DNA of 64,000 nucleotides from Metarhizium brunneum (taxonomy: Eukaryota; Ascomycota; Sordariomycetes; Hypocreales; Clavicipitaceae): contig NC_089427.1 in the NCBI RefSeq assembly GCF_013426205.1, positions 310,001 through 374,000 on the forward strand, written 5' to 3'. Below are positions 289 through 34,712 of the stretch, in pieces (position 1 is the first letter of the stretch; each line of letters starts with the position of its first letter). The notes below the pieces were generated by a model. That model ran no database searches and was not told the origin of the DNA. It worked only from the letters and a program-made list of their open reading frames with translations. A program made the position numbers and the translations under genes.

Positions 289-1192
289 CTCGCGTTGTTC
301 CAGACGACCAGACTCGACGATTGACTTTGCAAGCCGCGGCGAGGCTATTATGCAGCGCGGCGGTCTGGTCTGGGCTGGCCTCGTCGGACTCGAGCGAGAC
401 TCTGCCATCCGAATGCCCCCAGATCGCCCCACCGTGGCCCACGGCCTCGATCGCCTTGGAGCTGCCAGCACAGCAGGCTGGGGTCAAGGTGCACTGTGTC
501 TGGGACATCTGGAGCGTTTGGGGCTTTGACCATGGTTCACAAGCCCGTCCAGGGGGTTCAGCGCCGGGATGGCCGTGCCATCGTCGTACCAGCCGATCCA
601 GACTCTGGGAAGCGCGGAGGCCAGGACAGGGGTCCATGCCAGACACGTCTCGCCTCTTTATCCCGGTTGACTCGTTCTCGGACGCACCAGTCAGCAGTTT
701 CCGGTGAAGGCTGAAGGGTCTGACGAAACTCCGGATGGACACTTGGATGTGCCACAGCTCGTATTTGCCTCGTCGCATGATTTTGCCAGGCCCTAGCCAA
801 ATCTCCCTGTCCGCCGAGCAAGCTAATTGAGGAAGCGTACATACATGCTTTGTTTTTTTTTCTGGGCATGGGACGCTGGTTGTGTTTATCTTGGTCTGGG
901 CCGGGTTGTCGTAAGAACGAGCGAGTTTTGTTTCGTCATGCCCTTCAGCCGCACGCTTACCATGGCACGCCGTCGCTCATGAGAATTTTTGCAGACGCAT
1001 TTGATTGTTTAAGAACAAAGAGTGTCCGTGACCCGCAAACCTAAAACCACTGCTCTCTTATTGGGACACTCGCCGGTCGTCTGCCTTGGACTAATAATTG
1101 AGCTTGGACACCAGTTTGTAAAGAAACCGGTTTCTCAAGAACAACAAGGACCACCAGACCGTTTGTTTCCCTAGCACAAGACAGCACCAAGC
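289..1192. promoter_or_regulatory. shared intergenic region between ega3 and agd3
   Basis: About 0.9 kb separates the two divergent galactosaminogalactan genes and should hold both promoters. I saw no further credible coding sequence and no defined binding site. The ORFs here overlap one another without any recognisable protein. Confidence 0.5.
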
Positions 1193-3500
1193 ATGCGGTC
1201 CGGTATTGTTGATGCCCTCACCAGGGCCGCTTGTGCCCTCTGCCTGTTGGGCAATATCCTCCCAGCTGCCGCCATCACCGTTGGGAGCACCGTCTTGATC
1301 CTGGCCCGCGATGATGCGGAAGCCAAAGGCGCGGCCATGGGCCTCGACGGCTATGGCATACCCTATCAAAAAGTTATATTTCCCGCCGGGGGAACAAACC
1401 TGCCTGTTCTAAACTCTTCGGCGACGCAGGGCAACTATGGCGGCATCGTCGTCATCTCCAATGTTGCATATGATAATAATGGCACCTTTGCCAGCGCCCT
1501 CACGCCCCAGCAGTGGGCTCAAATAAACAGCTACCAGTCCACCTTCAAGGTGCGCATGGTTCGAATTAATGAGTTTCCTAGCGCAGAATTTGGTGAGTTG
1601 CGCGGGATGCAACGTCCATGTCGTTACTCTGTCCGCTTCGTCCTGACTTTTTCCAAGGTACCATCGTGGCCAATACTGCTGAGCCCGGCTGTTGCGGAAG
1701 CAACACCGAGCAAAAGATCAGTCTCACCGATATTTCCCAGTTTCCCGGGGCAAATCTCAAAGCGTACGTCACATTCATCTGCCGCGATGCAACGCAGCAC
1801 GTTCACGCGCACTGCACCGTGCATGTGCCCACCTGAAACATGACATCTCTCTCTGTCTTGTTGTTCAGAAAAGAGAAATATACCGGCAGCTAACGAGTGC
1901 AAATAGAAATGCCGGCGTGTCTACGCAGGGTCTCTGGCACTACCCGGCCACCATCACAAACACAACCACGACCAAGGAAGTGGCGGGCTTTGAGGCGGCC
2001 GCCGGCTTTGCGTCAAAGACAACCGCTGCCGTGGTGCATTCCGCCAATGGCCGCGAGCAGATGGTATGGTTCATCAGCTGGGATCCTACCTGGTCCCAGA
2101 CCTCGAGCTTCTTGCAGCACGCCTACATTCACTGGATGACACGCAGCTTGTTTGTTGGCAAGCGCCAAAGCTACTTGAGCACCCAGGTTGACGACGTGCT
2201 TCTGGACACGGAGCTTTACTACCCCCCAAACACCACCTTCCGGCTCCGACCCGGAGATCTGGATGCCCATGTCGCTTGGCAAAAGAACCTGGCTACCCGG
2301 CTGCCCGCCGGGTCCAACTTTTGGCTCGAGATGGGCCACAATGGCAACGGCAACATCATCGGCTCCACGGCAACGGCAAGCGGTGAAACGACTTGCAAGC
2401 CAGCCTACGCCGTGGACTACACCTCCCCCCCAGATACACCTCTCGAGTTCATGAAGCCGCCCGGGACCGGCGTGGATCTCTGGCCCGCCGAGTTCGTGAG
2501 CTACACGTGGTCGGCCACCTGCTCCAAGCTCGAGCCGCTCGGCGCCTGGTTCACCAACACCAACAACCTCAACGCCTTTGCGCACGTGTCGCACACGTTT
2601 TCGCACGAGGAGCTCAACAATGCCACGTACCACGACGCCACGCGTGAAATCTTCTTCAACCAGGCCTTCCTCAAGTCCGTGGGCATCGACCGGGCGGCGC
2701 GGTTCTCCCCCAAGGGCATCATCCCGCCCGCCATCACGGGCCTGCACAACGCCGACGCCATCAAGGCGTGGACCGACAACGGCATCATCTACGTGGTCGG
2801 CGACAACACGCGCCCCGTGCTACGCAACCAAAACAGCGTCTACTGGCCGCTGCGCTCGACCGTGCAGACCAACGGCCGCGAGGGCATCACCATTATCCCC
2901 CGCTTCGCCACCACCATCTACTACAACTGCGACCTGCCGGCGTGCACTGTCAAGGAGTGGATCGACACGTCCGGCGGCTCGGGCGACTTCAACAGCCTCC
3001 TCGACAACGCGCGCGCCGTCAACACGCGCAACCTGCTCAGCCTCCAGGCCGACCCGTACATGTTCCACCAGGCCAACATGCGCCAGACCGACGTGGCTCC
3101 TCTGACCATCGGCTCGCAGACGGGCAAGCAGTCCCTGATTATGGCCTGGGTCGAGACCATTGCCCAGGAGATGACGCGCCTGACCAACTGGCCCTTGTTG
3201 TCGCTCAAGCACGACGACCTCGCTACCTACTTCCTCAACCGGATGGCCCTCGATGCGTGTCAGCCAAAGTCGTCGTATACGTACTCTGCTGACGGCAAGA
3301 CCATTACCAAGGTGACGGTGACGGCTAACGGAAACACGTGCAGTGCCCCTGTGCCCGTCACTTTTCCTGGAGGCATCGCCACCACTACGCTCCTTGGGCC
3401 TCTGAAGTCGACCAAGGTCGGTAGTGAGCCGCCGATTCTGTGGGTGACGCTTTCCGGGAGACCTGTAGACATTCTGCTGTGGACCCCGGTCAAGCTGTAG
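1193..3500 (+). CDS. agd3: galactosaminogalactan deacetylase Agd3 (CE18)
   Basis: Secreted enzyme that removes acetyl groups from GalNAc in galactosaminogalactan, giving the cationic adhesive form of the polymer. Exons 1193-1592, 1658-1763 and 1907-3500 give 699 residues. Both introns have consensus donors (gtgagt, gtacgt), and intron 2 has a CTAAC branch point 15 bases before its acceptor. A signal peptide covers about residues 1-27. The N-terminal third is the accessory, carbohydrate-binding-like part. The deacetylase core shows the NodB-like aspartate pair in VDDVLL (D264-D265) and the metal HxxxH in HTFSH (H398, H402), followed by well-conserved Agd3 sequence to the C-terminus. Length is close to the family. 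It is divergent from the ega3-like gene. No other cluster member (uge3, sph3, gtb3) follows on the right, so the rest of the locus would have to lie left of the window. Confidence 0.9.
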
Positions 3501-5141: not shown

Positions 5142-6891
5142 CTAACTTTTCTCAAATTCATCCAATTGCGTCTCGATGCCCGAGATGGCATCCGAGTCGA
5201 CCAACGGAACTTGAAATTTGTGCCTGGCACGAAATACATAGTAGACCAGACCAAACACCATCCAACCACCAAACACGACGATGGAGTAGTTCATGTTCTT
5301 TGCCGTAACAGGCATTGTCGTCGGGAACAAGCTAAATATGATGACGGTAACCATCCATATAGCACCCAAAATGTTGAGTGTTATGCCTGGCACAAACCCA
5401 AGACGAAATCTGCCGTACTGGTGCGGCTGCAAGTTCCACCGGCCGTGAAAAAGCATATACAAGACGGGCAATAGATACGACAAGTACAGCCCAATGATTG
5501 CCATGGACAGGATGGCATTGAATGCCGTGTCATTACCCAGGTAGATGAAGCCCAGTGCGAATTGGAGCGCAACCACGGCAAGAACTGCGTTGAGCGGAAT
5601 CTGCAGACGGGGACTGATGTGAGATAGAGCCTCGTGGTAAGGGGTCGCTTGGTCGCGAGCAAAAGCCCAAACGGTTCTCGACGTCGACACGATGCCCGCA
5701 ATGGTGGCCGCGACGGCGATCAATATGACCATGATGGACATGATTGTGGTGCCGACGCGTGAGTTGGTAGCGTCAAGGTAGATCTGCATGAACGGGAAGC
5801 CCAAGGGCGCATTTTCCAGGTCCGTAGATCCAGCCGAGTACAGCAGCACAATGACATAGGCCAGACCCATGACGCCGTTGACAAAGACGCTTCCGATCAT
5901 GGCCAGCGGCACGTTTCGACTCGGCTGAGGCAACTCTTCGGCAAGATGGCACGCCGCATCGTAGCTGCGCAGACAAGCCAGGGTCAGCAAATATTGTCAC
6001 GGACAACGGGGCACAACGTCTTACCCAAGAAATGGATATACAGCGCTGACAAGCCCGACGAGCCAAGAGATGCCGTCGCTGTCCCAGCCGCTGCTGTTGA
6101 CAAAGTCGAGAAACACGACTTGGCTGGTCGTCTTCTTGGCCATTGCCGCCAGCGTAGCAAGTATGCCGACGAATCCCGCAATGTGGATGATGCCTGACGA
6201 GGTTAGAAAACAAGGAGCCGACTTGGACGTCTTTTAGACATGGACACCTACCTGAGAGGATGTTGACATGAGGCATCACCCGCATGCCCCAGATATTCAG
6301 GATGGCGGCATAGGTGAGGACGCCCCAGTACAGGAACATCCCTTGCCATCGCAGCGGGATGTAGCCGTCGTCATTCAGAACAATCAGCGCTTGCGTCTGC
6401 AGGCCCGCAGCAAACGCAGCCGACGACGTCAGGATGATCTGGCCGCCTACCGAGATCCATCCCGTCACATAGGCGGCCGTCATCTTGCTGGGCCCGGGGC
6501 ACAGCGCGGCAACCCAGTGATATTGGCCTGTAGCGAGCAAAAATTGGTAAAATGCCACAAACTATGCTGAAAAGTGCATCACGTACCTCCAGCAGTGGGA
6601 TAGATGGACGCAATCTCGCCAAGCGAGGCGGCCACGCACATGGAAAAGAAAAACGACAAGACGCTACGCTTGGTCAGCCTGTCAATGCTTTTTTTTCTCG
6701 ACTCTATGATCTTACTAGTTGTAGAACAGGCAGGGAGAGCCACCGCTCACCAGCGCGGTCGCAATCACGGTCGAAGTGGCCTCCCACGTCGCCATCAGGC
6801 AGATGCATAGCGAGACCAAGGCCGGCAGGGAGAATCGCCTCTGGAGCTCCTGCTCATGGCCCAGCTGGGCAAGACGCCGTTCCTCATCCAT
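5142..6891 (-). CDS. APC-superfamily amine/choline/GABA-type permease
   Basis: Plasma-membrane importer of the fungal choline/GABA/amino-acid permease family. Exons (minus strand) 6891-6716, 6663-6587, 6527-6252, 6193-6025 and 5964-5142 splice in frame to 506 residues, the usual family length. All four introns are 52-60 bp. Recognisable segments in order are WEATSTVIATALVSGG (helix 1), AASLGEIASIYPTAGGQYHW across the exon 2/3 junction, and YDAACHLAEELPQPSRNVP, the conserved loop of HNM1/UGA4-like transporters. About 12 hydrophobic helices are present. The start at 6891 is the first ATG; the reading frame upstream continues only from a TTG. It is divergent from a copper amine oxidase, which suggests it imports that enzyme's amine substrate. 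The exact substrate cannot be read from sequence. Confidence 0.88.
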
Positions 6892-8185
6892 GGTTTCTGC
6901 GTACAATGCGGTCGAGATGAAAACAAAAAAAGAAAAAAGAAAAAAAAAACTATTCAGACGCTCTAAACAACCGCGCCGTGTAGATTGCGCTGGCTACTTT
7001 TTTAAAGGAAGCGTCGACGGTAGAGGTGCGTTGGTGGCCATCACGATGGACAATTTGTGGTGACGATCAAACTAGCCTCGCGAGGATGCGGCCTAGGCTC
7101 AATCAGGGCATCCGCCTGGCGACCAAATACAACGTCGATATTGCCATTGCGATAAGGGAGCGGTTGCTGTCCGTGTTGTGGCTGGACATGGCTGGCTGGC
7201 GCTCCCCGCCTTTTAGTTTCCGATTCCGACTTCGTAGGAGTCGTCGACCGGTGTCTGAAGGGGACTGTGGCAGACGCCGTTTCACAGGGTTGCCAGACTA
7301 TTGATAATCAAAGACGTGACAAGGCTCGGGGTGAGTGCGAGTTGAGGGGCGGCTTTGACACACGACCGAGTATAGAGACTGAGGGCTGCGGAGTGGCGGG
7401 CCATGCCGGGTAGCCTGCCAATGGGATTCGAATTCCTGTCATTAACATGGAAAACTAATACAGTCATGACGCCCTTGCGACCGTACAAGGCATCAAGTGG
7501 TCAAGTCGATGGTACTTGGGGAGGGAGTTGGGGTAAGTGGTTGTTGAGAGGCTGCGTCCAAAACAGAGTGGCCCAAGGTGTCAACTGGAGCTGGATTCAA
7601 CCAGACCCCCTATCCATGTCCTCTTGTTATTAACTTTGGAATTCAGGCCTCTTCCTCTTTTTCTTATGGCCGTCCGGGCAGGTCTCCAAGTACCGGCCCC
7701 GGAGTCTTGGCAAGCGGGACATGTCAATATCGTGGAGAGGGTATTCAATATATTGACTCGGTCGGCTCTTAATAGGATCTTGCATACATTCCAACTATGA
7801 CAGTCCCCATCTCGACAAGGTACCAAAGCGTCGATATAGAATGGAGTCGTGAAACTCCCCGGCTCCGAGGCTCGGGCACCAGGAGTCGTCTGGAGACGCG
7901 CCCCGTGCCATGTCAACCCCAGAGTCCCAGACTCGGGCAATTGGTCATCAGCATTGAATGCCGATGCTGTGGATACTCAACTGGGGAAAACATCGACACG
8001 ATGATTGATTGATGGCGAATCCACTCGGAAAACAAAGGCCGTGTTCCGAATACCCCAGACGCTCGACTTCCCCTCACCAAACTGACGCAAGTGGCCGCCT
8101 CCGAGCCTCATTTAATCAACGCATTTGTTCTCTCGTCGACCTGCAATCCTCTGCAATAGGCAATTGATCCATTCGAGCACTGACA
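6892..8185. promoter_or_regulatory. divergent promoter region, permease / copper amine oxidase
   Basis: About 1.3 kb between the two start codons with no supported coding sequence. The first 60 bases next to the permease are purine-rich on the plus strand (runs of A at 6928-6949). It is probably a shared control region for uptake and oxidation of an amine; I could not define operators. Confidence 0.45.
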
Positions 8186-10490
8186 ATGTCTGCGGTCCCA
8201 CACCCCCTTTCTGACCTCTCTGCGCAAGAGTCCAACGCCGCCAGAGATGCCGTCCTGAAGCTGCATCCCGGCGCCGTTATTGACTTTCGAGCCATCTATC
8301 TGCTCGAGCCCAACAAGGCCGACGTGCTCAAGTTTCTGGCTCTGGAGCACGCCGCCAAGCTCACGCCCGACAGCCCTCGCCCTGCCCGTCTTGCCCAGGT
8401 CAAGTACGATGTCATTGGGGGCTCAGAACCCACGCAGTACCACGAGTCTGTTATCAATGTCGCAACAGCTCAACGGGTCAAGCACACTGTTGTGGGCCAG
8501 GAACACCATGCCAGTCTGTCCATGTAGGTATTGCACCGCCCCGTTGCCAGCAGACGCACCGGCTCACCCGTCCGTGTAGCTATGAGTTTGAGAGAGTAGT
8601 CGAGGTTGTGAAAAACTCCCAAGTCTTCCAGGAGAAGCTCAAGTCCATCCAGCTGCCCGAGGGATTCGAGCTCGTCGTCGAGCCCTGGCCGTATGGAGGG
8701 CCCGACGAGGCCGACGGCCAGACTCGGCTCTTCCAAGCCCTGTGCTTTGGTCGAGACACGAGGAGCGGGAACCCAGACTCCAACTTTTACGCGTACCCGT
8801 TGCCCTTTATCCCCATTGTAGACGCGAGAAAGAAGGAGGTGATTCGCATCGACCAGCCCGCAACGGGCGGCAAAGGCGACGCCCTGAGCGGTGCCTCGCA
8901 CAAGACGCAGGTCCTGGACCACTGCCGGTCTGCGGAATACGTGCCCGAGCTCATCCCGGGCGGCACGAGAAAGGACGTGAAGCCCCTGACCGTGGTGCAG
9001 CCCGAGGGCGCGAGCTTCACCGTGTCTGATGAGAACCTCATTGAGTGGCAGAAATGGCGCTTCCGCGTCACCTTTAACCCGCGAGAAGGCGCCGTGTTGC
9101 ACGATGTCCGCTACGACGGGCGCGACGTCTTGTACAGATTGAGCATCAGTGACATGGTATAGACGCCTACCCCCTCCTTTCTCATCAAATTCTTCATCCA
9201 AGCTAATCAGTACTGCCTGGCACCACGCAGACGGTGCCGTATGCCGACCCCAGAGCCCCCTTTCACCGCAAGCAAGCATTCGACTTTGGCGACGGTGGAC
9301 TGGGAAACTGCGTCAACAACCTGACACTGGGATGCGACTGTCTTGGAGTCATCAAGGTAAGCCGCCGCGTCTTTGCATCCCGCTCCCACCTCGTCGTCCA
9401 CAGCTGCTGATGCTTCTTCCCGCGCAGTACTTTGACGGGCTTCTCACCAACCCAGACGGCTCGGCCCAAGTGAGCAAGAACGTCATCTGCCTTCACGAGC
9501 AGGACAACGGCATCAACTGGAAGCACACCAACTGGCGCACGGGGCGCGCGGTAGTCACGCGGCGCCGCGAACTGGTGGTGCAGTTCATCATCACGCTCGC
9601 CAACTACGAGTACATCTTTGCCTTCAAGCTCGACCAGGCGGCGGGTATTACTCTAGAAGCGCGGGCCACGGGCATCGTGTCCGTGGTCAACATCGACGAG
9701 GGCAAGACGGCGCCCTGGGGCAACGTGGTCAACCCGGGCACGCTGGCCCAGAACCACCAGCACATCTTCTGCGCGCGCATCGACCCGGCCGTCGACGGGC
9801 ACGGCAACTCGCTCGTGCGGGAGGAGAGCGTCCCCGTGGCCGTGGACCCGGCGACCAACCCCAACGGCAACCTGTATGAGGTGCAGACGACGGTGGTCAA
9901 GACGTCGGCCGGCATGGACCTCGACCCCTTCCGCAACCGCGTCTTCAAGGTGCAGAACCCGTCGAGGCGGAACCCCATCAGCGGCAAGCCCGTCGGGTAC
10001 AAAATCACCACGCCGCCCACGCAGCTGCTGCTCGCGGCGCCCGGCAGCATCCAGTCGAACCGGGCGCTCTTTGCGCGGCACCACCTGTGGGTGACCAAGT
10101 ACAGAGACGACGAGCTGTACGCCGGCGGGCGGTACACGCTGCAGAGCCGGCGCGAGGTCGACGGGCTGGCGGACGCGGCGGCCCGGGGGGACAATGTCGA
10201 GGACGAAGATATCGTCGTGTGGAGCGTCTTTGGGCTGACGCACAATCCAAGGGTCGAGGACTGGCCCGTCATGTAAGAATCCCCCTCTTCCCCTTTACGC
10301 TCACTTCTGTGTGTAGGCGGCTGCTAACTTGACGCGATTCAGGCCCGTGGAGATGCTGCAGGTGCACATTACGCCGTCCGACTTTTTCACGGGCAACCCT
10401 GCCATTGACGTGCCGTCCAGCTTGGACAGCGGGTCGAAGCTGGCCAACGGGGAGTGCTGCAAGCCCGCCGTCAATGGCAACGGCGTGTAG
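8186..10490 (+). CDS. copper amine oxidase (TPQ-dependent)
   Basis: Oxidatively deaminates a primary amine to the aldehyde, ammonia and hydrogen peroxide. Exons 8186-8523, 8580-9156, 9231-9356, 9428-10272 and 10343-10490 give 677 residues, typical of fungal peroxisomal/cytosolic amine oxidases; no signal peptide is visible. The topaquinone site is NYEY with the precursor tyrosine at Y407. Copper ligands are H457 and H459 (NHQHIF) and H619 (GLTHNPR). The catalytic-base region is AFDFGDGGLG, encoded by exon 3. The C-terminus does not end in a clear SKL-type signal (it ends NGNGV). It is divergent from the permease and lies upstream of a Zn2Cys6 regulator and a CYP504, so an aromatic monoamine such as phenylethylamine is a reasonable but unproven substrate. 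Confidence 0.93.
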
Positions 10491-11155
10491 ATGGTGTAGA
10501 TGGTGTGGACGGGGTAGAGTTAGTTGGAGTCAAACGTAGGCTAGTTGTGCGCGCATAGAGTAGTCCAATCTTCAATGTTGCATCGACATGTACAGACCGA
10601 TGAAGCCTGTCACCGCATGGCCAGACGTGCATCGTGCATGTGTATTTCACTCGTGAGCAGTCACAGGGCATCTTTGCGCGAATTTGTTTGCGGGTAGATT
10701 CCTTGGCCCCTGTATATTTTGTTATCTACACATGTAGTCGCTTGCCCTCGGCATCACGTAGTTGTGTCCTATCGCGGGGTCAAGATGACGAGCCGCCCAT
10801 GAGACGATATATCCATCCGGCAACTTGATTCTGGCTAGAATTTGTCAAATTTCCGCCGCTGTTTAGTTTTAGTTTTCTCTTTTTTCTTCTTTTTTTTTCC
10901 GTCTCATTTTCTCCAGTCTCGCGAATCGCCGGATCTACTTCCGACGTGGCGGACATCTCGCCGTGTGGGTTTCCGAATTCCGACTCGCAGCCTCACACTT
11001 GGAACACACGGCAGTCTACCGGAACACATGCGCCCTCCACTACAAAAAAGGTACGTAGCATTTAAGAACATTGAACCCACGTATAACCCAGCTGTCGAGT
11101 GCCAGAACCCCATTTCTACCGCTTTGCTCGCGCACCACCCCCTCGACGCACAACC
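10491..11155. other. intergenic region with pyrimidine tract
   Basis: No gene seen. It holds two copies of the 9-mer TTCAATGTT/AACATTGAA (10571-10579 and 11067-11075) and a pyrimidine-rich tract at about 10,864-10,916, of the kind common in fungal promoters, upstream of the Dabb gene. Confidence 0.5.
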
Positions 11156-11519
11156 ATGGCACCGATTCACCGCGTCACCCTGTTCAAGATTGAAAGCGAA
11201 AATGACCGGCAGCACTTGCTAGAACTGTACCGGCAGATGCCGACCAAGGCAGTCAAGGTACGCCGCCCGCTCCTTTTGCAACATTGGTTTCTCACTCGTC
11301 ACACAGGATGGCAAGCCGTACATTCAGTCGGTGACGGCTGGGCCGACCAAGCCGGACCAGCGGGCGCAGGGGTTCACATTTGCCGCCATTTCCGTCTTTG
11401 CGTCCCTCGAGGACATGGAGTACTACGACAATAGCTGCGCGGCGCATGCAAACCTCAAGGAGTTTGCGAAAAAGGCGCACTCGGGCGCCATGATGGTGTA
11501 TTTGGAGAATGGGCTGTAA
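11156..11519 (+). CDS. stress-responsive A/B barrel (Dabb) domain protein
   Basis: Small cytosolic protein of 104 residues from exons 11156-11257 and 11307-11519 (49 bp intron, gtacgc donor, cacacag acceptor). It shows the Dabb pattern: an N-terminal strand HRVTLFKIES, a helix with LLELYRQMP, a GKPYI..VTAGP turn, and FAAISVFASLEDMEYYDN followed by a final HANLKEFAKK helix. Proteins of this fold are dimeric ferredoxin-like barrels. Some are enzymes in aromatic or polyketide pathways and many are of unknown role. The start at 11156 has an ideal context (ACCATGG). It is tail-to-tail with the Zn2Cys6 gene, 125 bp apart. Its place inside an amine/phenylacetate block suggests an accessory role, which is inference. 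Confidence 0.85.
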
Positions 11520-11644
11520 ATGCATGTATCAAAACCCGGGGGGTAAAATAATGAAATAAAAAAATTAAATAAAAACCATATATATAGTTCCAAAGCGCCA
11601 AGGCAAAAATGCCATATATATACACATAATTGCATCATCAGCCG

Positions 11645-14245
11645 TCACATGAGCCCCTGCAAGAAGCGCCGCGAAATGTCCAGCCCGTCGCCGCCGACGA
11701 GGTCCGCATCCAGCGCATTGTAGAGCCCCGAGTCAAAGTCGTCCGGGAACTGGCTCCCCTGGCCCAGGGTGTCAAATAGATTCAAAATATCGTTATTCAG
11801 CTCCGTCATGTCGGGAATGTCGGCGCCCAGACCGGGATGTGTCAGGGCGCCCGGGCCCGTTTGCCGGCCGTTTGCCGGCCAGACCTGGTCGTCGTCGGCG
11901 CGGCTGACGGACGGCCGGCCGCGCACAATATACGACGACATGGACGAGGCGTCGCTCCCCAGGGTCCCCGCGGCCGAGGGGCTGTGCATGCGGTCGCCGC
12001 CGGCGCCGGCGTCGCAGTCCTGCAGGCCCAGGCTCTTGAGGCGCGGCAGCAGGCCCCGGATGCTCTTCCACAGGCGGCGGCTGGCGATGCTGTGGCGGCT
12101 GAAGCCCCTCACGAGGCCGATGGCGTCGATGAAGCTCTGCGCGCAGCCGGCGGCGAAGACGTTGGGCGCGTGGCAGATGGCCAGGGAGATGACGGCAAAG
12201 GCGCCGAGCAGGAAGTAGTTGAAGGCGTTTTGCTGGCGCGAGTAGATGTCGGACGTGGCGTTGAGGTGCACCAGCACCTGGACCGTGTCCTGGGCCAGGT
12301 CGACGGCCACCTTGGCCCGCGCGAGGTCGGCCTTGATGGTGGCCGCGCTCAGCAGGTGGTGCTGGTAGATGGAGATGCGGGTGAGGTTGCCGCGGAGGTA
12401 GAGGAAGGCGCGCAGCCGGTGCAGCACCCGCGGCTGCGAGCGCGTCGAGTAGAAGGCCCGCGGGTGACGCATCTGGAGATGGGGGGGGATCGACTCGAGC
12501 CACGTCTGCGTGCTGGCGTCGAGCGCGTTGGCCACGTCGGCCGGGATCGACTGGCACGCCGAGCCGAACGGCGGGATCGCGTCCCACAGCTTGGAGCACA
12601 GCCGGGCGTAGCCCACCATGCATTTGAGGTATGACGAGTCGATGTCCTGGAGAGGTGGTCCCGGTTAGTATTCAGGGTTGTGTTAGGGTTAGGGTTACTG
12701 GGTGAGGGGCCGAGATACGGACCGGCTCGAGAAGCGCTGGGTCAATGTCCCTGTCCGTCAGGGAAAACGAGAGGCTCGTGCCGAAACTCCACCGCCGGTC
12801 GAGGACGTAGCAGCACCAAAAGACTCTCAGGGCGGCGTGCCGCGACTGCGGATCGGTAAAGTTGTCGTAGAGACTCCTCCGCCGGTGCAGCCCCATCTCG
12901 AGCGCCTCGCGGGCCGCGATGCCGATTGTCCTCCAGGCCAGCAGCTCGTCGTCGCAGTGGAAGTAGTAAATGCTCTGCGGGCGACGGTCAGTCCAGCTGC
13001 CGCTGCGTCTTGTCAAGTTTAAAAAAAAAGGAAAAAAAAAAAGAGCGCGCGAGCTACGTACCAGCATCATCAAGAGCTGGATGCCCTTGAGCTCCACCTC
13101 GGTCCTGGATATGCGCGCCGTCACGGCCACGACCGACTCGGCAATGGCGGCGCAGAGGTCGTTTTTGCCGTGCGCCTCGATGGCGATGCCCGTGGCCACG
13201 GCGAGCTTGGCCAGCCGCACGTCGGTCCAGGTCAAGGGCGGCTCGTGGACGTCGACCCTGGGCGCCTCGTCCAGCAGCGAGGGGTGGCGGATGACGCGCA
13301 GGATCTGCTCCGAGCGCGCCGCCAGCTCGAGGATGTTGATGAAGGGGTACACGGATTCCACCTCCTCCTCGAAGACGGCCAGCAGCCTCGCCATCTCCTC
13401 GGGGGAGCACTCGGCCCAGAACTCGACGTCGGTGGCCTCGGCCTGCTCGGGCTCGGCCGGGGACGGCGCGCCGCTGGGCGACGGCGACGGCGAGGCCGGT
13501 ATGCCCATGCGCGTGAGCGACCGCTCGGCAATCACCAGGCCGTACGACGGCCGCGTCGGCCCTACGAACTGCGGGTGCTTGGGCACGTTGTCCTTGGACG
13601 TGTTGGACGGGGAGCGCGCCGCCACCACGTCGAAGTGACCGGCCATGGTGGTGCGCGCCCCGGGCGACTGGTGCTTGAGCTCGTCTACGGTCCTGGAGAG
13701 ATCCGTCACCTGTTGCCGCAGCTTGGCCAGCTCATCCCCCAGCGCCTGCATCTGGTGGTTGCTATGTCGCCGGGCGTCGGTCAGCATGCTCAGAGTCCGT
13801 GACGTGACATGATATGGGACGGGGGATCGCGTCCACCCACCTCTCCTCCTTCTTCTTGCTGCTCTGCGGCGTGACGGCGGCAAATACGCAGTGTACGCCG
13901 CCGGCGATGCATCGCTCACAGCTGGAGCCGTTGACGGGGATGCACTTGAGCTTCTTCTTCTTGCACTCGTTGCTTCAAACATGGTCCTCATCATCAGTGT
14001 CAACTGGTCTCTTGCCCGCGAGGGACGGCGGCCGCCCTGGCCAGGGTGTCTGGCAGGCACACCCGTCTACGCAAGAGGTCAAACGGTCAAACGTACCATG
14101 CCACCGACGTGTACTTGCCTCGCTTCGGCTTGGGAGCGGCGTCTGACGACAGACTGGGCGGCACAGGTCGCTTCGGGGGCTCCACGTCGGCCGTCTGGTT
14201 GCTCACGGGCGACGAGTTGTCTTCCATATCGACGGGCGGTGTCAT
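11645..14245 (-). CDS. Zn2Cys6 fungal transcription factor
   Basis: DNA-binding regulator of 744 residues. Minus-strand exons are 14245-14097, 13972-13841, 13761-13062, 12974-12723 and 12646-11645. The binuclear cluster is intact but split by intron 1: C50-x2-C53-x6-C60-x7-C68-x2-C71-x6-C78 (ACNECKKKKLKC ... CERCIAGGVHC). It is followed by a basic SSKKKEER segment and a coiled coil (about residues 96-120) for dimerisation. The middle homology domain (about 210-460) has the usual HRRRSLYD and FWCCYVLDRRWSFGTSLSFSL signature. The start at 14245 was chosen as the first ATG in a fitting context; MED six codons on is an alternative. Intron 3 contains two A-runs, and intron 4 contains about 2.5 TTAGGG units. 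It is divergent from the CYP504 gene, so it is the obvious candidate local regulator. Confidence 0.92.
12683..12697. repeat. interstitial telomere-type repeat (TTAGGG)2.5
   Basis: TTAGGGTTAGGGTTA inside intron 4 (12647-12722) of the Zn2Cys6 gene, directly visible on the plus strand. The splice sites flank it and are unaffected. Confidence 0.9.
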
Positions 14246-14932
14246 TTCCGGAACGCTCTTCGGCTGCGTGGTGGCATTTCCGAGTGGGAAAAAAGCAAAG
14301 ATGACCACGGCTTGCAAACCAATCTTCAGTGAATGGGTGGGACGAGGAAGTTATGCAACGCGTCTCCGCGCCTCGCCGGAACCGGTTCCGGATTTCCGGC
14401 CATGGCGTTTTCGCCGGCCAACGCACCCAACAATCCATCCTCTTGGCCACGGCGGGAGCGGGGCAGGAGGGTCACGTTTGTTTGACTCGCGTTTTGAATC
14501 CTGGAGAAGACGAGCTGAGCGACGCTCTGCAGCGCATTGTTGCTCGTCTAGCGCCCTACGTTCTCGACTTGACTTGCTGGTGCTCCCCGTCGGCGGTCAA
14601 GCGGCACGAGACCAGCCAGGCCGACCCGTATTGTGCGGAATCTACGCCTCCAGATCGTCGTCGACTCGTCGGACAGGCTCCCCGTGTCCCGATGCCCAGG
14701 CGGGCGGCGGCGGTTCTGGAACCGACAGGAACCGCGGCGTCCCCTCGCTGTGCCTCTGCATTATAATAAGTGACACGTCCTGAGTCCTGGCCAGGGCTCC
14801 TCTCACACGGGCCCAGATCGACGTATTGAGTGTAGCAGTCTGCCGTGATCAACCTCGACGCAGCGCAGCCGCCAAGAAGCAACAGCGTCCCCTGCGTCCC
14901 CCATCTGAAACCACCACACACACACAGTCGCG
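14246..14932. promoter_or_regulatory. divergent promoter region, Zn2Cys6 regulator / CYP504
   Basis: About 0.7 kb GC-rich spacer between two divergent start codons. ORFs on both strands here are shadows with no family resemblance. It probably carries both promoters. Confidence 0.4.
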
Positions 14933-15317
14933 ATGCTGTCCGTCGTCGGGCTGCTCTCCTTGATCAGAGAGCAGGAGCGGCGGTTTACCCTAGAGACGCT
15001 CGCCGTCACCTGCATCCTCGCGCCGCTCGTCTACATTCTCGTCAACGAGGTGATTCGCTACCATGCGCGCATAGGAGGCATGAAGGGGCCCAAGGGCCTG
15101 CCCGTGATTGGCAACCTCTGGGACATTCGCGTGAATGCGGCGGAAAAGTACCGCGAATGGGCTCGCAAGTTTGGCGATGTCTACCAGATCCAGCTGGGCA
15201 ACATACCCGTCGTCGTGGTGAACTCGGCGGCGGCGGGGAGGTCTATTTTCGGCCAAAATGCGCAGGCCATGAGCTCGCGGCCTGAATTCTACACGTTTCA
15301 CAAGGTTGGTTCAATGT

Positions 15318-15355
<38 letters not shown>

Positions 15356-16726
15356 TTATTATCATCATTATTACTATTTTTTCCCACAACCCTCCCTCCT
15401 GCCGCTTGCTCACAAACATGACAGGTCCTCTCCGACACGGCGGGCACCACCATCGGCACGTCGCCATACAGCGACTCGTTGAAGCGGCGGCGCAAAGGTG
15501 CCGCGTCGGCGCTCAACAAGCCCTCGATCCAGATGTACATCTCGCACCTGGACATTGAGTCGCGCGACTTTGTCCGCGAGCTGTACGAGTACGGCGAGGC
15601 GGGCAAGACGCCGACGGACCCGATGCCCATGATCCAGCGGCTGTCGCTCTCGCTCGCGCTGACGCTCAACTGGGGCGTGCGGCTCAAGAGCCAAAAGGAC
15701 AACCTGTTTGACGAGATCACGCACGTCGAGGAGGAGATTAGCCGGTTCCGGTCGACGACGGGCAACCTGCAGGACTTCATCCCGCTGCTGCGGCTCAACC
15801 CCATCAACATGCACTCGACCAAGGCCAAGGAGATGCGCAGCCGGCGCGACGTGTACCTGACCAACCTCAACGACGGGCTCGACGAGCGCATCGCCAACGG
15901 CACCTACAAGCCGTGCATCCAGGCCAACGTCATCCTGGACGAGGACGCCAAGCTCAACAAGGAGGAGCTCACGTCCATCAGCCTGACCATGCTGTCGGGC
16001 GGCCTGGACACGGTCACGACCCAGGTGGCCTGGTTCGTGGCCTTTTTGTCGCAGAACCAGGAGATCCAGGACCGGGCCGTGGCCGAGATTCGCAAGTTTT
16101 ACGACGAGCAGACGCCCATGTGCGACGAAAACGACGACCAGCGGTGCGCCTACGTCGTCGCCCTGGTCAAGGAGTCGCTGCGGTACTTTACGGTGCTGCG
16201 CCTGGCGCTGCCGCGCGCGTCGACGAGGGACGTTTTGTACGGAGGATGCACCATCCCCAAGGGGTCGATTGTGTTTCTCAACGCGTGGGCCTGCAACATG
16301 GGTAAGTAGAATTTGATACCAACCTTGAACCTCTCTCTCATCACCAGACTGCCTGCTCACTCCCTCGCCCCCCCTGCAGACAACAAGGTCTGGCACGACC
16401 CCGACGTGTTCCGCCCCGAGCGGTGGTTCGAGCAGCCCGACGCGCCGCTCTTCACGTACGGCGTCGGCTACCGCATGTGCGCCGGGTCCCTGCTGGCCAA
16501 CCGCGAGCTGTACCTCGTCTACATGCGGCTGCTCAACAGCTTCCGCATCGAGAAGCACGACACGGTCGACTGCCACCCCGTCACGGGCAACTCTGACCCG
16601 ACGAGCCTGGTGGCCCTGCCGCACCGCTACCGCGCCCGCTTCGTGCCTCGCCACCCGGCCGCCCTGCGCAAGGCCATGGACGAGACGAGGGCCATGGGCG
16701 GCATGGACGAACTGGTTTCAGCCTGA
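14933..16726 (+). CDS. phacA: cytochrome P450 CYP504, phenylacetate 2-hydroxylase
   Basis: Microsomal monooxygenase expected to convert phenylacetate to 2-hydroxyphenylacetate, the first step towards homogentisate. Exons 14933-15304, 15425-16301 and 16380-16726 give 531 residues. An N-terminal hydrophobic anchor covers about residues 24-38, then GPKGLPVIGNLWDIRVNA, a CYP504 hallmark. The I-helix is SGGLDTVTT (G316-T320), the ExxR helix follows in KESLRYF, and the haem loop FTYGVGYRMCAG has ligand C450. The strong CYP504A-like sequence throughout makes the substrate call better than usual for a P450. Intron 1 contains a T-run of about 33 bases. It is divergent from the Zn2Cys6 gene and followed by an MFS transporter. 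The second enzyme (CYP504B type) and homogentisate dioxygenase are not in the window. Confidence 0.88.
15321..15354. repeat. poly(T) tract in CYP504 intron 1
   Basis: About 33 consecutive T residues between the donor at 15305 and the acceptor at 15424, lengthening an intron that would otherwise be about 85 bp. It is likely to be length-variable. Confidence 0.85.
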
Positions 16727-17572
16727 GGGGGCCAAGTGCCGCGTGAACATTTGAAACTGCCGTCTTTTACGGAACATGGAACCCGCGAACCGTTCCATGC
16801 TAGGTACACTGTATGTAGTCAAGTCTTGTGTGAATAAATAATGCACCGGCGCTTTTGCGACTGTAAAACAAGCTTAATTTGATCGACTGCTCGGCGCATT
16901 ACCTGTGAATCCAGTGCATGATTTCTTTCTAATCCCATGTTTCGGCGTCGTGCGGCGAATCCGGTGCGTTGGTGCCGGCACTTGCGCTGGCCTCAGTCTT
17001 GTCCGCACGGCATCAAACATTGAACCCGCCTCTCTCCACCCCCGACATCGAACCCCAAACTTGGGCCGGTCTCGACAGGACTCGGGTGACAAGGTTTACC
17101 CCAGATGGCCAGGCGCTGCAAAGGCGTAAAGTGCCGTCTGGTCGGAACTGGCTGGCATTACCGTGACTCCAGCGTAAGGTCGGGCACCTCCAATGGCAGT
17201 GTTTTGGTCTCGGTCCAATAATCTCCACGATGAGAAAGGGCGCAATCTCGATTGATACCGTATCCCCAATCTACGGTGGACCCTGCGGCCTGGAGTAATC
17301 CATTGATACCGTAACCCATTCCTATCCTGTAACATTGAACGCAAAGGTCCTGACTCCTCCAGTCTTGTCGGAGCCGATGGTCACTGTGGAGCAGAAGTCG
17401 AGCAACTAGATAACAAACCCTCGTCCGGGCGGAAAACCCAAAAAAACACGTCGTCTTTGAATTTCACATCCCTAGTATGTATACCTGCGACGAAAAGAAA
17501 CATCCGCCCCGGTATTCTGACGCCAACCTCTCTAGATAGCAGCTTGAGGTCTACTGGATAGCCCTCGCAAGC
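16727..17572. other. intergenic region
   Basis: No gene seen between the CYP504 and MFS genes. Two AACATTGAA motifs lie at 17016-17024 and 17331-17339, and direct TGATACCGTA words occur around 17250-17320. Confidence 0.5.
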
Positions 17573-19487
17573 ATGGAGCACCGCACCGACGAAACCGACG
17601 TGCCGGGCACCGTATCTCTGGAAGATTGTAACGGCCCCCCTTCAAGCAAACATCTCGTACCCCCTACACAGACGCAGGCTAACGTGCTTTTCAAAAAAAA
17701 AAGTAAACAATGTCTCGGACAAGGTCGTCCTGCACCCGGTGCCGACGACGGACCCCAACGACCCGCTCAACTGGTCCTCTCTCCGAAAGACGGTCAACTA
17801 CGGGCTGGTCCAGATCTACGTCCTGTTCACCTTTGTCCAGCTCGACATTGGCTTCACCGCGTGGAACCAGTACCAGGAGGAGCTGGGCCTGAGCGTCGGC
17901 ACGCTCAACGGCGCCACGGCCCTCAACTACGCCGGCCTCGCCGTCGGCAGCTTCATCTTTATCCCGCTCATGCATAAGTACGGCCGGCGCCCGCTGTATA
18001 TTGTCAGCACGATGCTGCAGCTCGCGTCGTGCGTGTGGTTTGCCCGCGCAAATACACAGGCGGACATGTGGCTGGCCAACCTGGTCTCGGGACTTGGCGG
18101 CGCCGTCTGCGAGACCGTGGTGCAGGTCACCATCTGCGACATCTTCTTCATCCACCAGCACGCCGTTATGAATGCTGTGTATTTGCTGTTTACCAGCGTG
18201 GGCGCCTTTCTCGGCCCCGTCGCGGCAGGGTACATCGTGGACAGCCAGGGGTGGCGGTGGATGTGGTGGTGGTGCGTCATCTTCTTCGGCGTCAACCTCT
18301 TGCTTGTGGTGTTCTTCTTCGAGGAGTCCAAGTACGTCGGCGCCATTCAGGGGCAGCCCGTGGCGGACACGGCGTCTATACAGGACGCGGTCAAGACGGA
18401 CATGGACAGCCGGCACGTCGAGGAGAAGGCGTACAAGTCTGATTTCCGCATCAGCGAGGACGACGTCCAGCGGACCGAGTCCCGGAGCTACATTGACGGC
18501 GGTATCCCGATGAAGTCGTACCGCGAGCGCATGAGGCTGGTGACGCGCACTGACGAGTCGATCCTCCGGCACATGCACGAGCCGTTTCCTGTCCTGTTTA
18601 CCTTTCCGGCGGTGGCGTTTACGGCCATTACGTACGGCAGCATGCTGGCCGTGTTTGCCATTCTGGTGTCGGTGCAGGCCATCTACCTCTTTAGCCCGCC
18701 GTACAACTTCTCGGCCGCCGGGGTCGGGCTCATGAACATCGCCCCGTTTGTGGGCACGATCCCCGGCGTCTTCATCGGCGGCACCCTCAACGACAAGTCG
18801 ATTCTTTGGCTCTCAAGGAGGAACGGCGGCGTGTACGAGCCGGAGATGAGGCTCTGGCTGGCCCTGCCCTGCGCGATTGCCGGGCCGGCCGGCGTTCTCT
18901 TGCTGGGCGTGGGATTGGCAAATGTAGGCTGAGTGCTCTTTGCTTCGTGGGCATCTTTATTACTACGACTATAACCAGTCCATGCTAATCAACTGCTTCG
19001 CCAGGGCGTCGCGTGGCCGCTGCTCGCGGTTGGGTTTGGTCTTTTTGGCTTCACCCTGACTGTTGCTGGCAGTATTGCCTTGTCCTACGCCATGGACTGC
19101 TATCACGACGTAAGTAACTTGGCATGCCTGCACCCGGGTGATGGGAACCGGGTGTTATTTGTATTTTATTTTATTTTTCCTTTACACTCCCGCCCTGCCG
19201 TCGGATGACTGACTAACTGACTGACTTTTGCCTCGCAGATTGTCGGCAGCTCCATGATAGGCATCATATTCACCCGAAACGTGCTGTCTGTCGTGGTCCT
19301 GTTCGCGCTCACCCCCTGGATTGAAAGCATGGGCCTGCAAAACGTTCACATCTTGGTCGCCGGCATCTTGGGTCTGATTCTCCTTATACCGGTGCTTCTT
19401 CTGAAATGGGGCAAGAAGGCGAGAGCGCGGTCTGCCAAAGCTTATCGAGCCATGGCAGCACGTCAGTCAACGAGCAGGGAGCTGTAA
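17573..19487 (+). CDS. major facilitator superfamily transporter (fungal DHA/HOL1-like)
   Basis: Twelve-helix plasma-membrane transporter of 542 residues from exons 17573-17627, 17704-18923, 19005-19109 and 19239-19487. Exon 1 is only 55 bp; its intron has a GCTAAC branch point and an AAAAG acceptor, and the splice gives VSLEDLNNVSDKVVL, normal for the cytoplasmic N-tail. Then follow DPNDPLNWSSLRK, typical of this fungal MFS group, the loop 2-3 signature LMHKYGRRPLYI, and a central cytoplasmic loop (about residues 225-290). It lies 0.85 kb downstream of CYP504 on the same strand, so it may move a substrate or product of that pathway. The family also includes polyamine, cation and drug carriers, and sequence alone does not decide between them. 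Confidence 0.87.
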
Positions 19488-20219: not shown

Positions 20220-21380
20220 ATGGCTGGCACAGACAAGCGCGGGCGCGACAGGATTCGCAACATCCTCCCAGACATCTACCTGGGACGATGGCCGACCGGA
20301 CGCCTCAACTCCATCACCGACGTCCCCGGCGTCCTGGTGCATACGCAGTCGATTGAGCCGGATGACCATGTTCACACGGGCGTCACCACCATATTGCCGC
20401 GGCCGGACTGGCACGAGTACTCGAGCTTCGCCGGCGTCTTCCGCTTCAACGGCTGCGGCGAGATGACGGGCTCGCACTGGCTCAACGAGACCGGCCTGCT
20501 CTGCTCCCCCATCATCATCACGGCCACGTCCTCTGTCGGCGAGGGCTACCGCGGCGTCACCGAGTATGTCTACCGCCACCACCGCCGAGAGGGCGGCGAG
20601 GTAGACCTCTTTTTGCTGCCCGTAATTGCCGAGACGTACGACGGCTTCCTGAGCGACCCGGCGCGGTTCGCCGTGACGCCCGAGCACGTCATGCAGGGGA
20701 TCCAGAGCGCCACCGCCGACGCCGTGCCCGAGGGCAACACCGGCGGCGGCACGGGCATGATATGCCACCGCTTCAAGGGCGGCACGGGGTCCAGCAGCCG
20801 CGTCGTCAAGGGCTACAGCGCCGACGGCAACGGGGTCGACTACACGGTCGGCGTCCTCGTCCAGGCCAACTACGGCCTCGCCGAGACGCTTTGCATCGGC
20901 GGCGTGCCCGTCGGCCGCATCCTCCAGAGAGAGGGCAAGCTGGCTAAGCCGGCCGACGCGCCGGAGCCACGCAAGGACGGCAGCATCATTATTATCGTGT
21001 CTACGGACGCGCCTCTCATCCCTATCCAGCTGCAGAGGCTTGCTCGACGTGCCACTGTTGGTCTGGGCAAGGTCGGCGGCTATGGAAACAACAATTCGGG
21101 AGACATCTTTCTTGCCTTTTCGACGGCGAACAAGGTCCCCGTTGGCGATGTGTCCATGCAGTCCAAGCCTGGGTTTAACGACTTCACGCCGGCGGAGCGC
21201 GTGGTAAGCATGTCGGATAATGACACCATGAACGGGCTGTTTGAGGCGGCTGCCGATGCGGCCGAGGAGGCTATTTACAATGCCATGTTCATGGCGGAGT
21301 CGATGACGGGGTACAAGGGCAGACATGTACCGGCTTTGGATCTGGGTGATGTAAGGAGAATTGTAGAGAAGAGGCTGTGA
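20220..21380 (+). CDS. S58 family (DmpA/BapA-type) aminopeptidase
   Basis: Single-exon gene for a 386-residue Ntn-like hydrolase of the DmpA family (L-aminopeptidase/D-amidase-esterase or beta-peptidyl aminopeptidase). The autoprocessing site is in KGGTGSSSR: cleavage before S191 would yield an alpha chain of 190 residues and a beta chain of 196 with S191 as N-terminal nucleophile. Other conserved segments are ITDVPGVLVH at the N-terminus, GNTGGGTGM before the site, and the VLVQANYG strand after it. There is no signal peptide, so it is probably cytosolic. It releases N-terminal residues from small peptides, amides or beta-peptides; actual substrates differ widely in the family. It lies beyond the MFS gene on the same strand, and a functional link to the amine block is only positional. 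Confidence 0.9.
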   Translation: MAGTDKRGRDRIRNILPDIYLGRWPTGRLNSITDVPGVLVHTQSIEPDDHVHTGVTTILPRPDWHEYSSFAGVFRFNGCGEMTGSHWLNETGLLCSPIIITATSSVGEGYRGVTEYVYRHHRREGGEVDLFLLPVIAETYDGFLSDPARFAVTPEHVMQGIQSATADAVPEGNTGGGTGMICHRFKGGTGSSSRVVKGYSADGNGVDYTVGVLVQANYGLAETLCIGGVPVGRILQREGKLAKPADAPEPRKDGSIIIIVSTDAPLIPIQLQRLARRATVGLGKVGGYGNNNSGDIFLAFSTANKVPVGDVSMQSKPGFNDFTPAERVVSMSDNDTMNGLFEAAADAAEEAIYNAMFMAESMTGYKGRHVPALDLGDVRRIVEKRL

Positions 21381-27624: not shown

Positions 27625-29075
27625 ATTTGATAAAGAAATAATTCTTGGATATAGACGGCTGGTTGTGAGAATCAAAGATCAAGGTTAGATGTACGGTGAA
27701 AACAAAGTGTACGGAGTGAATGCAACATCTCGGCTATGAAGCATTCCTTCAACGAACATGGCACAAGTTATTCTTGGAATAGCTTTATGGAGGCTATGCA
27801 GGGGCCCATGCCCTAGGGTTAACACCTCTCCACGTTGTGACCCTCGGCACGGGACATTTTTTGAAATCTCTGACGCGGTGTGAGCCCGCTTGACGTCTTT
27901 TCAGTTCATGTAGCTCCAATTCGTACAAAATAGAAAGCTGGGGTACCTGCAGCCTGACTACGTCTGGTACGTGTGGGCCATGTGAGAATCAGACTGAGCA
28001 AAACACTTGTTTGCAGGAGCTCGGCAAATATGCTCATTATCACATGGAAATGAGCCAATGTCACACGGTTTCACAAGGGCTACGGTCACGGGATTAGGGC
28101 AGAAGGTCCTCACCAACTTCTTGTATTTAAAGACGTCTTTGATCTTTAAGGCCTTAAGGAAAACCAAAAACCTTTGATACCAAAGACTGTTATTAGATGA
28201 ATTGAGTAATTGCTCCAAGCTAGGCCCTTGTCACACTCATCATTTGAAATGTGTCATGGTTTTGAGATGATCGGAAGGCATCTGGAGTTTAACTCATAGA
28301 GCCATTCATCTCGCATCTAGAGGCGGCAAATTCAATGGCAAAGTTCACCTCAAACATCAGCTAGGCCCCTGCTTGATTCAGTGTCTATGAGAATCCAGTA
28401 AGATAGCACTGTTATTTTTACGTAGGAATGTAACGCTTCGCATATTATTTCCACCATCTTTTCAGTTGGATTCATTCAAGCTCACATTCACTGAAAGTAG
28501 TAATAAGATAAGACGGCAAACTGGAACAAGAGGCTAACTGCGGAACTGGTAGGTAGATGGTAGATCGATCGAAAGAGGGGCTTGGTAATGTCAATTAATT
28601 CGCCCTGTGAGCTATAGGATAGACTATAACCAGAAAGCAATAGTATAAAACGGGTAAGAATAATAAGGAGGGGGGTCAAGGAAAGAGCCAAGTTAAGGAC
28701 GAGGAGGAGAGGTAGACGAGGCAAGGGACCAGGGATTTTATAGGTGTAGTTAAAAGAAGACAAGCTAATTATAAATACATACATAGTTTTAGCATACTAA
28801 AATAGTTGAAATTACAAACTAACTACTAGTTAACCCTACAAAGACTTCTATTTATTAAGTTATAGTCCCAATACTTACTCCCCACCCAGACAAGACAAAT
28901 AGACTCCCATTAGGATTATACTTTTTATTCATCCCTAATAGTCAATTATAGGACGCACCATAAAAATCCTCCTGAAAGTATAGAGTAGATGGGTTGCCCT
29001 CGTTCACATATGCGTCTGTGTGGGAGCCCACTCTCTCCTACCTTCTCTGTCGTTTTGTTCCGCCAAGTCGCCATC
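27625..29075. other. AT-rich intergenic region with repeat copy C
   Basis: No gene seen. The AT content and TA dinucleotides rise sharply from about 28,400 to 28,960, consistent with decayed, RIP-like sequence. Repeat copy C lies at 28069-28235. Confidence 0.5.
28069..28235 (-). repeat. dispersed MITE-like repeat, copy C
   Basis: About 167 bp, left end TTCACAAGGGCT and right end GGCCCTTGTCACA. The core at 28148-28188 contains AAGGCCTTAAGGAAAACC and CCTTTGATACCAAAGACTG. It is closely similar to copy D in the opposite orientation. Confidence 0.75.
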
Positions 29076-34526: not shown

Positions 34527-34712
34527 GACTAGGATTATGCACTATAACAAATCACGACGAATTGAGAAACTTGCAAGACGAAAAGGTTTAAATTGTGGGG
34601 TTATGCCAGATTAAAAGCTGGTCAACTGCCTGAATTAATGCGCATTTTTTTTATGGCCGTTGGGGGAGGGTGTGGTTGAAGATAAAAGACCTCAACTCTT
34701 CGAGCATGATAA

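What the first reader, a model, noticed from the sequence alone, without database searches (positions are those of the whole stretch)
5142..19487. Candidate aromatic-amine to phenylacetate catabolic cluster
A permease of the amine/choline/GABA type, a divergent copper amine oxidase, a Dabb protein, a Zn2Cys6 regulator, a CYP504 phenylacetate 2-hydroxylase and an MFS carrier lie in 14 kb. Known chemistry connects them: amine oxidase turns phenylethylamine into phenylacetaldehyde, oxidation gives phenylacetate, and CYP504 hydroxylates that towards homogentisate. I know of no described fungal cluster with this combination. The aldehyde dehydrogenase and later steps would have to be encoded elsewhere.
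Basis: partly seen in the sequence, partly recalled or inferred. Interest (0 to 1): 0.75.

Follow-up and report, generated by a model that had tools for sequence, protein, structure and literature searches.

The report
Fungal aromatic-amine breakdown gene cluster
A run of intact genes in an insect-associated fungus looks like a small toolkit for taking up aromatic amines such as tyramine or dopamine and starting to break them down, and its two key enzymes sit together in several other fungi, so the pairing is probably not chance.

Summary
In detail: permease, divergently transcribed copper amine oxidase (CAO), Dabb, Zn2Cys6 regulator, CYP504 P450 and MFS carrier are all intact at the stated coordinates. 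The host is a Metarhizium (P450 99% identical to M. guizhouense). Two corrections. (1) Database names place the P450 with PhacB (3-hydroxyphenylacetate/3,4-dihydroxyphenylacetate 6-hydroxylase), not PhacA (phenylacetate 2-hydroxylase), so tyramine- or dopamine-type amines fit at least as well as phenylethylamine. (2) An S58 (DmpA/BapA-type) aminopeptidase follows the MFS gene and shares its contig with cluster genes in three other Clavicipitaceae. CAO and CYP504 share a longest contig, with no sign of distance, in 5 of 22 species named in both hit lists, and Verticillium longisporum has them in one predicted protein. In the other 17 linkage is absent or unproven, so it is patchy. No aldehyde dehydrogenase or ring-cleavage match lay inside the cluster. 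Best reading: a catabolic cluster for aromatic primary amines; substrate and co-regulation untested. Boldest open reading: salvage of beta-alanyl-dopamine from insect cuticle. Ten searches of one open-access library listed no paper recognisable as describing such a cluster.

The parts
5142..6891 (-). amino acid/amine permease (APC superfamily, AA_permease_2), 5 exons, 506 aa
   Evidence: model; Pfam 205 bits; no sequence match among solved structures, so substrate unknown
8186..10490 (+). copper amine oxidase, 5 exons, 677 aa; TPQ Tyr407, base Asp323, Cu ligands His457, His459, His619
   Evidence: model; Pfam; best solved relative 3loy 496 bits; residues
11156..11519 (+). Dabb (stress-responsive A/B barrel) protein, 2 exons, 104 aa; role unknown
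   Evidence: model; Pfam 50 bits; one of 4 Dabb loci matched in the genome
11645..14245 (-). Zn2Cys6 transcription factor, 5 exons, 744 aa, cysteines 50, 53, 60, 68, 71, 78; divergent from the P450
   Evidence: model; Pfam Zn_clus and Fungal_trans; cysteines
14933..16726 (+). CYP504 P450, probably PhacB type, 3 exons, 531 aa; E374xxR377, haem Cys450
   Evidence: model; Pfam 224 bits; relatives; residues
17573..19487 (+). MFS carrier, 4 exons, 542 aa
   Evidence: model; Pfam MFS_1 116 bits; only a weak solved relative
20220..21380 (+). S58 (DmpA/BapA-type) aminopeptidase, 1 exon, 386 aa, Gly254-Ser255; neighbour in Clavicipitaceae, not in the wider core
   Evidence: model; Pfam 387 bits; solved relatives; linkage; residues

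Best explanation
A catabolic (assimilatory) cluster for aromatic primary amines. Proposed steps: the permease brings in an arylalkylamine (tyramine-, dopamine- or phenylethylamine-like); the CAO deaminates it to the arylacetaldehyde, releasing ammonia and H2O2; an aldehyde dehydrogenase encoded elsewhere makes the (hydroxy)phenylacetate; the PhacB-type CYP504 hydroxylates the ring, giving homogentisate or 2,4,5-trihydroxyphenylacetate; a homogentisate-dioxygenase-type enzyme encoded elsewhere opens the ring. The Zn2Cys6 protein would be the local regulator and the MFS carrier would move the acid or amine. Shown here: gene identities, intactness, and recurrent linkage of CAO with CYP504. Inferred: substrate, order of steps, co-regulation, and the roles of permease, Dabb and MFS.
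For: Intact genes with conserved catalytic residues: CAO residues in 120 of 120 listed relatives, P450 haem cysteine in 119 of 120 with one gap. Closest solved CAO is 3loy, 496 bits against 362 for the H. polymorpha methylamine/peroxisomal enzyme; I recall 3loy as HPAO-2, which PMC3382800 (passages) says prefers aromatic primary amines. P450 relatives are named 3-hydroxyphenylacetate (6-hydroxylase) in 38 of 120 rows. CAO and CYP504 share the longest contig in O. sinensis (47.6 kb), H. minnesotensis, Thozetella, I. robusta and P. plurivora and one predicted protein in V. longisporum. Two divergent promoters, 1.3 kb (permease/CAO) and 0.7 kb (regulator/P450). HgmA-type genes exist elsewhere in the genome.
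Against: In 16 of 22 species in both lists the longest contigs differ, and in F. nematophilum the genes are 816 locus tags apart. The shared contigs of I. robusta and P. plurivora are 2.3 Mb, so closeness is not shown there. No aldehyde dehydrogenase, HgmA or FAA hydrolase match lies in the cluster (one search scored 11 of 45 candidates). Promoter motif scan inconclusive. Fungal CAOs can be broad: A. niger amine oxidases were induced by n-butylamine (reference title seen in PMC9547800). Linkage of permease, regulator, Dabb and MFS in other fungi was not testable.
Confidence: 0.55

Rival explanations
1. Only the CAO-CYP504 pair is a functional unit; permease, Dabb, regulator, MFS and S58 are ordinary neighbours of a gene-dense region.
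For: Linkage in other genera could be tested only for CAO, P450 and S58; S58 is on another contig than the P450 in 11 of 14 shared species and far away in F. nematophilum. Promoter motifs gave no clear shared site.
Against: Regulator, transporters and enzymes fit one pathway, and two pairs share divergent promoters.
Confidence: 0.2
2. Tryptamine/auxin metabolism: the CAO oxidises tryptamine to indole-3-acetaldehyde on the way to indole-3-acetic acid, and the P450 modifies the indole acid.
For: PMC13208347 (passages) lists the tryptamine route for M. robertsii and names a peroxisomal copper amine oxidase and a 3-hydroxyphenylacetate-6-hydroxylase among fungal IAA-related enzymes whose deletion lowered IAA, citing a reference I did not see.
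Against: P450 relatives are named for phenylacetates. PMC7173932 (abstract and passages) attributes tryptamine catabolism in M. robertsii to MAO-B-like genes. A P450 that degraded IAA would work against an auxin-making cluster.
Confidence: 0.1
3. Beta-alanyl-catecholamine salvage: S58 removes beta-alanine from N-beta-alanyldopamine, the CAO converts dopamine to its aldehyde, an aldehyde dehydrogenase gives 3,4-dihydroxyphenylacetate, and the PhacB-type P450 6-hydroxylates it.
For: S58 is related to DmpA and to beta-peptidyl aminopeptidases with the Gly-Ser cleavage pair kept; it shares contigs with the P450 in Conoideocrella (locus tags 009205 and 009207) and M. rileyi and with the CAO in M. 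album; PhacB is described as a 3,4-dihydroxyphenylacetate 6-hydroxylase (PMC6723986, passages).
Against: S58 proteins of this kind are common in fungi that do not attack insects, such as Trichoderma and Fusarium, and mostly not linked. No substrate evidence. Its two paralogue loci in this genome lie elsewhere.
Confidence: 0.12

Closest known systems
PhacA/PhacB (CYP504) phenylacetate-homogentisate pathway of A. nidulans and P. chrysogenum
   Same: P450 named as PhacB type by its relatives; product would feed homogentisate-type ring cleavage
   Different: The passages seen on P. chrysogenum give a cluster of homogentisate dioxygenase, isomerase and fumarylacetoacetase and mention no amine oxidase; here the P450 sits with a CAO and no ring-cleavage gene
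HPAO-2, aromatic-preferring CAO of Hansenula polymorpha (3loy; identity recalled)
   Same: Best solved relative over residues 33-655; same catalytic residues
   Different: Yeast enzyme of unknown neighbourhood here; substrate preference of the fungal one untested
Tyrosine degradation and gentisate clusters (Greene et al. 2014, PMC3914699)
   Same: Aromatic catabolic gene clusters with patchy distribution in fungi (abstract)
   Different: Main text has 0 occurrences of amine oxidase, phenylacetate, CYP504, dopamine and tyramine
MAO-B-like MrMao enzymes of Metarhizium (PMC7173932)
   Same: Monoamine oxidation in the same genus
   Different: Human-MAO-B-like; the main text has 0 occurrences of copper amine oxidase

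Membership tests
Copper amine oxidase | Cu_amine_oxid domain with TPQ tyrosine, catalytic Asp and three His ligands | tested here: met
   546 bits; D323, Y407, H457, H459, H619 invariant in 120 of 120 listed relatives; motif assignment recalled and checked by eye on the 3loy alignment
Aromatic-preferring CAO (HPAO-2 type) | Preference for aromatic amines | not testable with these tools
   Only sequence closeness: 496 against 362 bits
CYP504 | P450 fold with ExxR and haem Cys, sequence closest to CYP504 members | tested here: met
   Pfam 224 bits; E374, R377 in 120 of 120, C450 in 119 of 120 relatives, one gap; phenylacetate-type names
PhacB subfamily | Groups with A. nidulans PhacB rather than PhacA | tested here: inconclusive
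   38 of 120 listed names begin '3-hydroxyphenylacetate', 7 are an unspecific phenylacetate name, 0 say phenylacetate 2-hydroxylase; reference sequences were not in hand and no tree was built
S58 peptidase (DmpA/BapA) | S58 domain with self-cleavage Gly-Ser | tested here: met
   387 bits; aligns to 5tzb, 1b65 and 3n2w; Gly254-Ser255 in 120 of 120 listed relatives; role of the Ser recalled
S58 peptidase (DmpA/BapA) | Activity on beta-alanyl substrates | not tested
   Needs enzyme assay
Fungal homogentisate/tyrosine degradation cluster | Homogentisate dioxygenase and fumarylacetoacetase genes in the cluster | tested here: not met
   HgmA matches lie at C2:3.69 Mb, C3:2.65 Mb, C1:55 kb and C6:253 kb; nearest FAA_hydrolase match is at window 53469-54207, 32 kb right of the S58 gene
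Co-regulated gene cluster | Joint expression under the local regulator | not testable with these tools
   No expression data; motif scan inconclusive

The most novel reading that the evidence does not exclude
In Clavicipitaceae the conserved CAO-CYP504 pair has recruited an S58 beta-aminopeptidase, making a pathway that dismantles beta-alanyl-dopamine, an insect cuticle-tanning catecholamine, to beta-alanine, ammonia and 2,4,5-trihydroxyphenylacetate: host catecholamines used as food, or removed as precursors of toxic quinones.
Probability: 0.12. Interest if true: 0.75.

Novelty: new variant of a known kind. Interest (0 to 1): 0.42.

Why it matters
If right, it joins two known but separate fungal activities, copper amine oxidase and PhacB-type ring hydroxylation, in one genomic unit that recurs in several Sordariomycete families. 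It gives a concrete route for nitrogen and carbon from biogenic amines met in insects, plants or soil. It also points to a copper-type way of oxidising monoamines in Metarhizium, a genus in which the tryptamine study seen here considered MAO-B-like enzymes.

Tried and rejected
Promoter motifs: k-mers and CGG triplet pairs in five intergenic stretches gave weak signals, for example CGG-N2-CCG 6 seen against 1.4 expected in four of five stretches, but the background was more AT-rich, so no claim is made. Copies of the cluster elsewhere: in the longer stretches held around the three other CYP504 genes, the hmgA gene, an HGD-P450 locus and two CAO genes (C6:536 kb and C1:782 kb), tblastn at 1e-6 found no homologue of the permease, regulator, MFS, Dabb or S58; the neighbourhoods of five further CAO loci were not fetched. 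Aldehyde dehydrogenase in the cluster: the nearest match is at C6:528 kb, about 200 kb away, but only 11 of 45 candidates were scored. Odd or decayed CAO: rejected, it is intact and ordinary. Solved relatives of the permease (none) and MFS carrier (one weak) did not help with substrate. Structure prediction was not run. Literature: the ten searches were made; I saw listings (titles and abstract starts), and searches listed only part of their matches. Papers were seen as passages (PMC3382800, PMC2657799, PMC5816127, PMC5869400, PMC6723986, PMC9547800, PMC4545319, PMC7842363, PMC9505000, PMC8471054, PMC12855686), abstract and passages (PMC7173932), outline, abstract and a term search without hits (PMC3914699), or passages and part of the reference list (PMC13208347). 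The original PhacB paper is not held.
Full report
What is there. The window is G000:C6:310001-374000 of a 37.77-Mb, 7-contig genome. The best P450 relative is 99% identical to Metarhizium guizhouense and the best CAO relative 99% to M. robertsii, so the host is a Metarhizium of that group; the species is not determined. From left to right: permease (5142-6891, minus), copper amine oxidase (8186-10490, plus), Dabb protein (11156-11519, plus), Zn2Cys6 regulator (11645-14245, minus), CYP504 P450 (14933-16726, plus), MFS carrier (17573-19487, plus) and S58 aminopeptidase (20220-21380, plus). The models are open, with GT-AG introns, and the expected Pfam domains pass their cut-offs. The models are mine, built by eye from splice sites; relatives annotated by others agree in length for the P450 (531 aa), CAO (678 aa) and S58 protein (387 aa).

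The oxidase. The closest solved structure is 3loy at 496 bits over residues 33-655, against 362 bits for the H. polymorpha methylamine/peroxisomal enzyme. I recall 3loy as HPAO-2. PMC3382800 (passages) says HPAO-2 prefers aromatic and HPAO-1 small aliphatic primary amines. Tyr407, Asp323 and three histidines are invariant in 120 of 120 listed relatives. The genome shows 8 CAO loci; the nearest paralogue, at C1:782 kb, is 56% identical over 537 aligned residues. Against a narrow aromatic preference: fungal CAOs can be broad, and the A. niger enzymes were induced by n-butylamine (reference title in PMC9547800).

The P450. The 120 listed relatives (of 804 found) are 66-99% identical and reach from Metarhizium to Aspergillus and Penicillium. 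By my count 38 of 120 carry a visible name beginning '3-hydroxyphenylacetate', 7 an unspecific phenylacetate name, and none 'phenylacetate 2-hydroxylase'; names are cut short in the listing and many are copied between records. PMC6723986 (passages) says A. nidulans phacA encodes a phenylacetate 2-hydroxylase and phacB a 3-hydroxyphenylacetate/3,4-dihydroxyphenylacetate 6-hydroxylase. PMC2657799 (passages) reports that a P. chrysogenum protein 82% identical to PhacB is 42% identical to PahA, and says PhacB can also convert phenylacetate. Three other CYP504-like genes in this genome are 38-48% identical over their best stretch. This is a call from names; no tree with reference sequences was made.

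Is the grouping real? Longest-contig lengths and locus tags printed with the protein searches allow a rough linkage test (named rows only). Of 22 species named in both the P450 and the CAO list, 6 have the same longest contig. One, Fusarium nematophilum, has the genes at locus tags 006133 and 006949 and is not clustered. The other five are Hirsutella minnesotensis (507 kb), Ilyonectria robusta (2.3 Mb), Ophiocordyceps sinensis (47.6 kb), Plectosphaerella plurivora (2.3 Mb) and Thozetella (891 kb); on the large contigs closeness is not shown. In Verticillium longisporum one predicted protein (P0224, 1044 aa) is this CAO followed by this P450: 67% identical over 665 residues of the CAO, and 71% over 304 and 54% over 84 residues of the P450. 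In the other 16 species the contigs differ, sometimes perhaps because strains or 90% clusters differ, sometimes with clearly distant locus tags (O. unilateralis, Thyridium, Sporothrix eucalyptigena, Rasamsonia). The pair is recurrent but patchy. Permease, regulator, MFS and Dabb could not be tested this way, the three protein searches being spent.

The seventh gene. The S58 protein matches the D-aminopeptidase 5tzb, the aminopeptidase 1b65 and beta-peptidyl aminopeptidases, and keeps Gly254-Ser255 in 120 of 120 listed relatives. It shares a contig with the P450 in Conoideocrella luteorostrata (tags QQS21_009205 and QQS21_009207) and M. rileyi, and with the CAO in M. album. Of 14 species shared with the P450 list 11 have different contigs and F. 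nematophilum is distant; of 16 shared with the CAO list 14 differ, and in F. nematophilum the two are 89 tags apart. It is a neighbour in Clavicipitaceae, not part of the older core. The genome has S58 matches at two other loci.

How it probably works. Uptake of an arylalkylamine; oxidation by the CAO to aldehyde, ammonia and H2O2; oxidation to the arylacetate by an aldehyde dehydrogenase elsewhere (nearest match about 200 kb away, where 11 of 45 candidates were scored); ring hydroxylation by the P450; ring cleavage elsewhere (HgmA matches at four loci). Only gene identity, intactness and linkage are shown. With a PhacB-type P450 the favoured acids are hydroxylated phenylacetates, which arise from tyramine- or dopamine-like amines. 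That, with an S58 neighbour in an insect pathogen, suggests beta-alanyl-dopamine, but nothing here tests it, and similar S58 proteins are common in Trichoderma and Fusarium. A tryptamine/auxin role is a live rival: PMC13208347 (passages) lists the tryptamine route for M. robertsii and names a copper amine oxidase and a 3-hydroxyphenylacetate-6-hydroxylase among fungal IAA-related enzymes.

Novelty. Each enzyme type is known. Ten searches of one open-access library listed no paper that I could recognise as describing a CAO-CYP504 cluster; most subscription papers are not in it and several listings were partial. Greene et al. 2014 on fungal tyrosine-metabolism clusters (abstract; term search) has no occurrence of amine oxidase, phenylacetate or CYP504. 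I rate it a new variant of a known kind, of moderate interest.

Noticed in passing
window 1175-3500; L028:4918-6480; L029:6259-9999: An Agd3-type deacetylase (all three Agd3 domains on window 1683-3500), an epimerase and a large DUF3492 ORF lie just left of the cluster; by recall this looks like a galactosaminogalactan cluster.
   Followed up: partly
L030 (C6:249001-258500): A homogentisate-dioxygenase-type gene beside an FMO-like gene sits about 60 kb left of the cluster.
   Followed up: partly
C1:52832-56004: HgmA_C and FAA_hydrolase matches lie within about 3 kb of each other near the start of contig C1.
   Followed up: no
window 53469-54207: FAA_hydrolase match in two stretches, with a stop in one; not examined further.
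   Followed up: no
C6:528384-529751 and C6:536284-537531: Another CAO locus has an aldehyde dehydrogenase match about 6.5 kb away.
   Followed up: no
window 28001-38000: GC falls to 0.40-0.46 in this block, from 0.55-0.66 over most of 6-20 kb.
   Followed up: no
window 15322-15354: A run of 33 T lies in the first intron of the P450 gene.
   Followed up: no
P0122 (Metarhizium album): M. album, which PMC7173932 says lacks Mao genes (passage), has a CAO 88% identical to this one.
   Followed up: no
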